From Paludibacteraceae bacterium (GTDB lineage: Bacteria > Bacteroidota > Bacteroidia > Bacteroidales > Paludibacteraceae), in the NCBI GenBank assembly GCA_905235225.1, contig CAJOKE010000018.1:1-64000 (forward strand): DNA of 64,000 nt. Reading direction: 5' to 3'. Every line of letters begins with the position of its first letter. Within the stretch, counting starts at the first letter, position 1. Of this stretch, positions 27,026 through 29,834 are shown in pieces. Made by a program: the position numbers and the translations under genes. The notes beneath the pieces are model-generated. The model did no database searches. It was not told where the DNA came from and saw only the letters and a program-made list of their open reading frames with translations.

Positions 27026-27149
27026 ATATTGTAGATTATATTACAAATTATGGTTTGCAACCAAGGCATTCCACATTTTTTTGTGTTCGTATTTGATGGC
27101 TGTATCTTGGGACAAAAGATTTGCATAGCATTCTACAAAACACTTTGGA

Positions 27150-28142
27150 TTATCCAACAAACGTTGGTATTATGCCGTTTATAATTAACTGACACCCATG
27201 GGTATTTCGAATTTGCTCAACTTCCCTTTCTACTGATTCCTTATCTGCTTCTGCAACAGATCGCGTTGATAATATGTAGTACCTTTCAAGCGTGCTTGAT
27301 TGTATTTTTTCTTTGGCTGTAACTACAATATTATGCGTTATTTCTATATCAAATTTAACTTCCACCGCCTCAAAAGCAGTTCCGTCTTCATTTACCACAT
27401 CAATATCGCCATGCCTTCCACTGCGTGCATCAGCTGATGTATGAGGCTCTATTGGAAGTAACTGTTTGTCCGCATAGCGGGATATTTGTTTAGTAATAAC
27501 CTCATATATTGCATATAATGCTAACACCGGCAGACGTGAAGCACCGGCAGAGTGATACTTTCCACAAAAATGTTTTTTCAGTAGTTCTACAATTGAATCT
27601 ATAGTGAGATTTTGAGGAGTAGCTATACTTATCTGCTTTTTATCTCTTTGAATAATTAAGTTCTGCAACAGATAGTCAACAATTTCTTCTTGCTTTCCGC
27701 TTTGCTCGATCTGCTTTATTGCTTCCAAAAAAGCAGGTTTCAATGTTGGAATGGAAGGCTTAATTGCCCCCGTATACTTTTCATCATATGGCACTTTTTG
27801 TTCAAGAGACCGGGTCAACCAACCACTTGATCCCATTGCAGGAAAGCGATTCTCCTTCAGGAAAGGCGTAATATAATTAGCATCAAAAGTCCGCCCGGCA
27901 TAACCGCCTTTTATACTGGATTGATGCCTGCGAATATCTTGTTGAGGATGAAGACATTTATATACTGCACTACTTGTAAATACAACTGTCATTACCGCCT
28001 TAGAACTCTCTGAATTGTCAATAATTACGTTTAGCGGGTGTCTAATACTGTCCGGCAACGTACTTTCTGCCTGATTTCCGTTAGCCGCAACTATTACAGC
28101 TGCATCGTATTTCTTTTGTAGAAATTCACTTGCTTGCATCAT
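27150..28142 (-). CDS. Type II restriction endonuclease (PD-(D/E)XK-like), possibly frameshifted at the C-terminus
   Basis: RHGDIDVVNEDGTAFEAVEVKFD nuclease-like motif; 4-bp overlap with the adjacent C5 methyltransferase. Confidence 0.8.
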   Translation of the reverse strand: MMQASEFLQKKYDAAVIVAANGNQAESTLPDSIRHPLNVIIDNSESSKAVMTVVFTSSAVYKCLHPQQDIRRHQSSIKGGYAGRTFDANYITPFLKENRFPAMGSSGWLTRSLEQKVPYDEKYTGAIKPSIPTLKPAFLEAIKQIEQSGKQEEIVDYLLQNLIIQRDKKQISIATPQNLTIDSIVELLKKHFCGKYHSAGASRLPVLALYAIYEVITKQISRYADKQLLPIEPHTSADARSGRHGDIDVVNEDGTAFEAVEVKFDIEITHNIVVTAKEKIQSSTLERYYILSTRSVAEADKESVEREVEQIRNTHGCQLIINGIIPTFVG

Positions 28143-29311
28143 AATAATTGCTGTTTGATTTGTTTTATTATTTCCTGTATCATCGGTACGCATACCGCAT
28201 TACCCGCTTGGCGATACTGTTCCGTTATACTGGTATCTCTAATGAACGATTCCGGAAAACCCATCAAACGATAACACTCATTTAGTGTTAATTTACGTAC
28301 ATTTGCACCGTCATATATCCAAAAACGACCGGAGGTCTCTTGGGATGGCAATGCCGGATGAACACCTTCGATTGAATAAATACGATTAGGTTGCTTGTGA
28401 ACCCTTGACAAATATTCCGTACCGGGACGCACACCGGCCTTCCGAATTTGCTTATTTCGATATCCGACAAATATCAATCCGGATTCTTGACGCCTGAAAC
28501 TGTCTAAAATAGTATATGGCTCCTTGATATACTCATAATTGGATGTATCGCTATCAAGAATATCCTTAATAAAGACCTTTTCTTTTATTGGCAATTGTGA
28601 AAAATCAAATTCTTTTTCCTTGTGAGCCACTATAATAATCCGCTCCCTATTTTGAGCCACACCGAAATTGGACGCATTCAAAACCTGATATGGATGATGA
28701 GTATATCCAAGATGATCCAAACCCTCCAAAATAGTTTTTAGTGTTCTTCCATGGTCATGGTGTACTAAGTGTTTGACATTTTCCAGAAAGACCACTTTAG
28801 GTTGCTTTGCTTCAATTATGCGAAAAACATTATATATTAATGTTCCCCGTGTGTCATCAAAACCTCGCATCTTGCCTGATATACTAAATGGTTGGCATGG
28901 AAAACCTGCACACAAAACATCATGAGTCGGAATAATTTCTAAAGGAATCTGCGTTATATCTCCAAAAGGAAATTCTCCATAATTTGCATTATAAACCCTT
29001 TGGGCATTTGGATTAAATTCTGACGAAAATACACATTTACCACCTTCATCCTGCAGAGGTATCCGAAAACCGCCTATCCCGGCGAAGAGGTCTATAAACG
29101 TAAATTCGGCATCAATTGGAGGAGGAAAAGGCACATCGTATTGTATATCTCCTACACCGTCAATATCATACGACATGGCAAACGGCGACACATAAGAAAA
29201 GGATTCCTGATGAGTATAAAATTGCTTAGACTGAGCCTTATGCGTGATAAATGCTATATCACGCTCATCATATGTCGCTTGCAACTCTCTATACCAGTCA
29301 GAATACCGCAT
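28139..29311 (-). CDS. DNA (cytosine-5) methyltransferase
   Basis: FIDLFAGIGGFRIPL, DVLCAGFPCQPFSISGKMRGF, ENVKHL, and AGNAVCVPMI. Confidence 0.97.
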   Translation of the reverse strand: MRYSDWYRELQATYDERDIAFITHKAQSKQFYTHQESFSYVSPFAMSYDIDGVGDIQYDVPFPPPIDAEFTFIDLFAGIGGFRIPLQDEGGKCVFSSEFNPNAQRVYNANYGEFPFGDITQIPLEIIPTHDVLCAGFPCQPFSISGKMRGFDDTRGTLIYNVFRIIEAKQPKVVFLENVKHLVHHDHGRTLKTILEGLDHLGYTHHPYQVLNASNFGVAQNRERIIIVAHKEKEFDFSQLPIKEKVFIKDILDSDTSNYEYIKEPYTILDSFRRQESGLIFVGYRNKQIRKAGVRPGTEYLSRVHKQPNRIYSIEGVHPALPSQETSGRFWIYDGANVRKLTLNECYRLMGFPESFIRDTSITEQYRQAGNAVCVPMIQEIIKQIKQQLL

Positions 29312-29520
29312 ATTGGACGCAAAAGTACAAAAAAAAAAGTGAAGTAGCAAATATAATTTATCATTTTGGGTCAAATGGAATATTTTTGCATATAAAAGAT
29401 TCTTTTTCATCCATATAGATGATATAAAAGACATATAACTAGACTATCGATGTGATATTATGCCTTAACACAACATATAGTCTGTATCTTTATAATTGTA
29501 TATTTTACAAAGACACTAAC

Positions 29521-29729: not shown

Positions 29730-29760
29730 CAAAAATGGATGACACTTGCCATCCATTTTG
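29730..29760 (-). terminator. Intrinsic terminator after tRNA-Pro
   Basis: Minus strand AAAATGGATGGCAAGTGTCATCCATTTTTG. Confidence 0.8.
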
Positions 29761-29761
29761 G

Positions 29762-29834
29762 TCGAGAAGACGTGACTCGAACACGCGACCCCTACGTCCC
29801 GAACGTAGTGCGCTACCAACTGCGCCACTTCTCG
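29762..29834 (-). tRNA. tRNA-Pro (CGG)
   Basis: Acceptor CGAGAAG/CTTCTCG; anticodon arm CTACG TTCGGGA CGTAG. Confidence 0.92.

What the first reader, a model, noticed from the sequence alone, without database searches (positions are those of the whole stretch)
27041..27167. Restriction endonuclease C-terminus continues in another frame
The ORF ends ...IINGIIPTFVG*. Starting near the same point, the shifted minus-strand frame reads QRLLDNPKCFVECYANLLSQDTAIKYEHKKMWNALVANHNL* (stop 27041-27043). This looks like a genuine C-terminal continuation, suggesting a small frameshifting indel around 27161-27167, or a frameshift event during translation. The enzyme may be inactive while the methyltransferase persists.
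Basis: partly seen in the sequence, partly recalled or inferred. Interest (0 to 1): 0.6.

Follow-up and report, generated by a model that had tools for sequence, protein, structure and literature searches.

The report
Recently broken restriction enzyme beside methyltransferase
A bacterium carries the gene of a DNA-cutting defence enzyme that has lost 17 bases near its end, so its last 40-odd amino acids are out of frame; this is an ordinary kind of decay, but the genome still shows the mark of the enzyme's past activity, which points to the DNA site it probably cut.

Summary
The restriction-enzyme ORF (minus strand, stop 27150-27152) ends early, and the +1 frame (stop 27041-27043) encodes the family's real C-terminus: a profile of relatives' C-termini picks this frame out of the whole six-frame window (E=7e-17; next best 0.44). 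All 42 homologues counted have 33 nt between two conserved anchors where the window has 16 nt, so the lesion is a net 17-nt loss, not a one-base slip. It removes a near-invariant YYLR motif and about three helices; the catalytic motif and the neighbouring methyltransferase are intact. Programmed frameshifting is disfavoured. A true mutation and an assembly artefact in this single MAG cannot be separated without reads.

The enzyme is a SacI/EcoT38I-like nuclease paired with a HhaI-like C5 methyltransferase. GDGCHC hexamers are depleted five-fold in this genome (0.20) but little in same-genus genomes without the gene (0.78-0.93), and are also depleted in three of seven other carriers. A HaeII-family system elsewhere in the genome matches an RGCGCY depletion and serves as internal control. 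So the enzyme probably cut GDGCHC for a long time and was lost recently. Decay of R with retention of M is well known.

The parts
28139..29311 (-). C5-cytosine DNA methyltransferase, intact (ORF extends to 29434; start placed at 29311 because homology of the N-terminal extension begins about there)
   Evidence: PF00145 308.8 bits; M.HhaI best solved relative, E=1.3e-66; aligned to homologues over residues 38/42-431
27150..28142 (-). Endonuclease gene, truncated product of 330 aa; start ATG overlaps the methyltransferase stop codon (ATGA)
   Evidence: homologues 37-56% identical; catalytic D/E/K residues kept; fold match EcoT38I
27163..27179 (-). Site of the lesion: 16 nt between conserved Asn and Arg codons where relatives have 33 nt (net loss of 17 nt)
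27041..27166 (-). Displaced C-terminal coding sequence of the endonuclease, now in the +1 frame, with its original stop at 27041-27043
   Evidence: profile E=6.8e-17; alignment
29759..29834 (-). tRNA-Pro (cgg) flanking the R-M pair; its neighbourhood with topA is conserved in the genus, without the R-M genes

Best explanation
A Type II restriction-modification pair, a HhaI-like C5 methyltransferase followed by a SacI/EcoT38I-like endonuclease, inferred to recognise GDGCHC. The endonuclease gene has recently suffered a net 17-nt deletion near its 3' end, so translation stops after PTFVG and the last 40-odd residues (near-invariant YYLR, Tyr and Trp; three predicted helices) are out of frame. 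The truncated enzyme is most likely inactive, while the methyltransferase remains as a de facto orphan. Shown here: the displaced C-terminus, the size of the net loss, the kept catalytic residues and the intact methyltransferase ORF. Inferred: loss of activity, the recognition site, the recency.
For: Tail profile hit E=6.8e-17; anchor spacing 33 nt in 42 of 42 homologues against 16 nt here; lost residues Y330, Y331, R333, L334, Y345, W363 of the L037 protein are near-invariant and lie in helices 324-334, 338-351, 357-369 of a confident model; the displaced tail is about as close to the other relatives as the tail of the nearest intact homologue, so it has not visibly decayed; other family members show independent endonuclease damage; GDGCHC depletion 0.20 with non-member hexamers at 0.77-1.01 shows a history of active restriction; published precedents (PMC8706393; PMC4687349).
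Against: No reads: the deletion may exist only in the assembly. Loss of activity is not shown; the catalytic residues remain. Four of seven other carriers show no clear GDGCHC depletion, and the genome has further methyltransferases.
Confidence: 0.72

Rival explanations
1. The deletion is an assembly artefact, or a minority variant picked from a strain mixture; the gene in the organism is intact and the system is active.
For: The window comes from a single MAG in 82 contigs, 82.75% complete. Apart from the deletion the gene shows no decay, and the genome still strongly avoids GDGCHC. Apparent frameshifts in R-M genes have proved to be sequencing errors before (PMC3488263).
Against: A 17-nt loss is not a typical short-read base error (own knowledge); the locus sits well inside a 105-kb contig.
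Confidence: 0.17
2. The truncated 330-aa protein is still an active endonuclease; the tail is dispensable.
For: Catalytic D, E and K residues are present; site avoidance persists; the truncated model keeps the EcoT38I match.
Against: The tail holds near-invariant residues and is present in all full-length homologues; model confidence falls around residues 171-210 in the truncated protein (against 54).
Confidence: 0.08
3. Programmed +1 ribosomal frameshifting joins the two frames into a functional enzyme.
For: The two frames overlap by about 20 nt and the tail frame is open and conserved.
Against: No homologue is split here; the joined product would still lack about five residues, including conserved tyrosines, present in every relative.
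Confidence: 0.02
4. The out-of-frame resemblance is chance and the enzyme naturally ends at PTFVG.
For: None found; only L044 ends nearby, 32 bases from a contig end.
Against: Profile E=6.8e-17; all other full-length homologues continue.
Confidence: 0.005

Closest known systems
EcoT38I restriction endonuclease (PDB 7edb, 7e8r; GRGCYC by own knowledge)
   Same: Only significant solved fold for both the intact relative and the window protein, over the full length; its site is a subset of GDGCHC
   Different: About 15% identity; no sequence-profile match; the window copy lacks the C-terminal helices; the inferred site is broader
SacI-family restriction endonucleases (PF09566)
   Same: Profile comparison of the two families E=1.6e-32 over 353 columns; paired with a DNA methyltransferase; SacI site GAGCTC (own knowledge) is a subset of GDGCHC
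   Different: Window protein has no direct PF09566 hit; the SacI-annotated plasmid relatives sit beside adenine methylases, this one beside a C5 methyltransferase
Single-chain methyltransferase-endonuclease fusions of Bacillota (e.g. WP_237636630.1, L003; L010-L018)
   Same: Same two domains in the same order, 53% and 41% identical to the window proteins
   Different: One polypeptide there; two genes overlapping by ATGA here
M.Hpy99III of Helicobacter pylori
   Same: C5 methyltransferase kept while its endonuclease gene, where present, is mostly a pseudogene: 15 of 61 predicted functional (PMC8706393)
   Different: Different site (GCGC) and population-level data; only one genome here

Membership tests
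Type II R-M pair with an inactivated endonuclease | Adjacent, intact methyltransferase gene | tested here: met
   PF00145 over its full profile; overlap by ATGA with the endonuclease start
Type II R-M pair with an inactivated endonuclease | Endonuclease gene disrupted relative to homologues | tested here: met
Type II R-M pair with an inactivated endonuclease | Disruption present in the organism, not only in the assembly | not testable with these tools
   No reads and no second assembly of the locus
Type II R-M pair with an inactivated endonuclease | Loss of cleavage, retention of methylation | not testable with these tools
   Needs a restriction assay and methylome sequencing
SacI/EcoT38I-like endonucleases | Catalytic Asp...Glu-x-Lys residues | tested here: met
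   D246, E261, K263 (L037 numbering) invariant in 37 sequences, window included
SacI/EcoT38I-like endonucleases | Fold match to EcoT38I | tested here: met
   E=1.4e-11 (L037 model) and 8.4e-10 (window model); TM-score only 0.62 and 0.40
SacI/EcoT38I-like endonucleases | Direct match to Pfam RE_SacI above its cut-off | tested here: not met
   No PF09566 hit for the window protein; the link is by profile-profile comparison only, so it is not filed as a PF09566 member
GDGCHC-specific R-M system | Site depleted in carrier genomes, not in non-carriers | tested here: inconclusive
   Strong in own genome and G747, clear in G750 and G748, weak or absent in four other carriers; three non-carriers 0.78-0.93
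GDGCHC-specific R-M system | Methylation and cleavage at GDGCHC | not testable with these tools
   Needs experiment
Programmed frameshift gene | Joined frames restore the family sequence | tested here: not met
   About five conserved residues would still be missing

The most novel reading that the evidence does not exclude
A family of C5-methyltransferase plus EcoT38I-fold endonuclease systems, found in Bacillota, Bacteroidota, Chloroflexota and Archaea as single-chain fusions or as separate genes, recognises GDGCHC; this genome catches the moment just after loss of restriction, with site avoidance still in place and the methyltransferase kept.
Probability: 0.5. Interest if true: 0.4.

Novelty: new member of a known kind. 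Interest (0 to 1): 0.3.

Why it matters
Decay of the endonuclease with retention of the methyltransferase is a known route to orphan methyltransferases. This case adds a clean example in which strong site avoidance still testifies to long past activity, and it yields a testable recognition site (GDGCHC) for an endonuclease family with no close characterised member in the resources searched.

Tried and rejected
Programmed frameshift: unlikely, since homologues encode the tail in one frame and the spacing shows a 17-nt net loss. Natural end at PTFVG: rejected, all full-length homologues continue except L044, which ends beside a contig end. Single-sequence scans of genome contigs, viral contigs and phages found no relatives; an alignment-based scan of genome contigs found 45, one of viral contigs none. 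Pfam, NCBIfam and PADLOC gave no significant family for the endonuclease. A PDB profile search by sequence found nothing, while the fold search found EcoT38I. An AccI-family gene to explain the genus-wide GTMKAC depletion was sought and not found, in a search without a working positive control. A viral fold search was started and not collected.

Full report
What is there. On the minus strand lie two overlapping genes: a C5-cytosine methyltransferase (ORF 28139-29434, probable start 29311) and an endonuclease ORF whose start overlaps the methyltransferase stop (ATGA at 28142) and which stops at 27150-27152 after ...IINGIIPTFVG. The methyltransferase matches PF00145 at 308.8 bits, and M.HhaI is its best solved relative (E=1.3e-66). 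The endonuclease reaches no curated family in Pfam, NCBIfam or PADLOC. It occurs once in its own genome, a MAG of 2.24 Mb in 82 contigs, 82.75% complete. Among the 358 genomes searched in its family the only other match is a remote relative, 26% identical, in G066.

The tail is real. An alignment-based scan of genome contigs returned 45 relatives, from Bacillota, Bacteroidota, Chloroflexota, Archaea and others. In the alignment the full-length relatives continue past the point where the window ORF stops, with a pattern close to YYLRLL..(S/N)T..FI..Y...L......EHK..WN.I, and the window's +1 frame supplies the same pattern from RLL onwards. A profile of these tails finds the window segment at E=6.8e-17, the next best segment being E=0.44.

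What the lesion is. Between the conserved Asn of the NG motif and the conserved Arg of LRLL all 42 homologues counted have 11 residues (33 nt). The window has 16 nt between the same codons (first bases 27179 and 27163). This is a net loss of 17 nt, which removes about five residues, including the near-invariant YY, and shifts the frame. A ribosomal frameshift could not restore the family sequence. The displaced tail is about as close to the other relatives as is the tail of the nearest intact homologue (L037, Muribaculaceae, 55% identical in the endonuclease and 69% in the methyltransferase), so the event looks recent. Other family members are damaged in other ways: an internal stop (L038), an early end close to a contig end (L044), two truncated archaeal copies (L050, L051), and a large internal deletion with a broken methyltransferase (L054).

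What is lost. In 37 aligned proteins the catalytic residues D246, E261 and K263 (L037 numbering) are invariant and are kept in the window; Y330, Y331, R333, L334, Y345 and W363 are near-invariant and lie in the lost part. The model of the intact relative (mean pLDDT 90.7) has three helices there: 324-334, 338-351 and 357-369. The model of the truncated window protein (mean 86.4) drops to block means of 57-80 over residues 171-210, where the intact relative has 84-97. This hints that the tail supports that region, but it is weak evidence because the two proteins differ. Both models match EcoT38I as the only significant solved fold, and a profile comparison links the family to proteins annotated as SacI family (E=1.6e-32). 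Loss of activity remains an inference.

What it probably cut. The sites of SacI (GAGCTC) and EcoT38I (GRGCYC), from my own knowledge, are subsets of GDGCHC. In 463 kb of the window's genome GDGCHC hexamers occur 83 times against 410 expected under a maximal-order Markov model, a ratio of 0.20. The five members with useful counts are each at 0.14-0.28, whereas the four related hexamers outside the set (GAGCGC, GCGCAC, GCGCCC, GCGCGC) are at 0.77-1.01. The five most depleted non-palindromic hexamers all belong to three degenerate sites, GDGCHC, RGCGCY and GTMKAC, followed by a gap from 0.24 to 0.58. RGCGCY is accounted for by a HaeII-family system with open frames on contig C15 (PF09554, 489 bits), which supports the method. 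GTMKAC is depleted in same-genus genomes as well, for reasons not found. Same-genus genomes without the window endonuclease show GDGCHC at 0.93, 0.78 and 0.84. Of seven other carriers sampled, three are depleted (G747 0.12, G750 0.34, G748 0.38) and four are not clearly so (0.77-0.85). Published work reports that orthodox Type II systems leave such avoidance, that it grows with the time the system has resided in the genome, and that it can persist as a trace of lost systems (PMC4687349). Lack of depletion in some carriers would then mean recent acquisition. Other methyltransferases exist in the genome (PF01555), so assigning GDGCHC to this pair is likely rather than proven.

Setting. The pair lies beside tRNA-Pro and topA. 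The tRNA-Pro/topA neighbourhood is conserved in four same-genus genomes, with no match to the R or M gene in the stretches fetched, consistent with insertion of a mobile R-M pair beside a tRNA gene.

Verdict. This is a disrupted endonuclease gene beside an intact methyltransferase. The phenomenon is known: of 61 H. pylori strains with the endonuclease partner of M.Hpy99III only 15 genes were predicted functional (PMC8706393). Frameshifts in R-M genes have also turned out to be sequencing errors (PMC3488263). Whether the deletion is in the organism or in the assembly needs reads. The useful new product is the prediction that this endonuclease family recognises GDGCHC.

Noticed in passing
L095:9475-11692 (own genome, contig C15): A second R-M pair with open frames: C5 methyltransferase plus a HaeII-family endonuclease (PF09554, 489 bits); its expected site RGCGCY is depleted to 0.14 in the genome and not in same-genus genomes.
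   Followed up: yes
own genome and G142, G156, G132 (same genus): GTMKAC hexamers (AccI-type site) are depleted across the genus (0.12, 0.33, 0.13, 0.51), with no AccI-family gene found.
   Followed up: partly
463 kb of own genome: CTAG (0.05) and GGCC (0.18) tetramers are strongly depleted.
   Followed up: no
L044:3980-4031: A Muribaculum relative loses the endonuclease C-terminus just after the YYL motif, 32 bases from a contig end; possibly an insertion-element boundary.
   Followed up: no
L054:1749-3467: A Bacteroidales relative with a frameshifted methyltransferase and an endonuclease missing about 200 residues in its middle: the whole system in decay.
   Followed up: partly
L003:1391-3511; L010-L018: In Bacillota the two activities are one polypeptide of about 706-760 aa; in S. 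epidermidis the gene is on a small plasmid between IS257 copies.
   Followed up: partly
window 27159-27172: The deletion junction lies in a short perfect inverted repeat, CCAAC-GTTT-GTTGG; probably chance.
   Followed up: no
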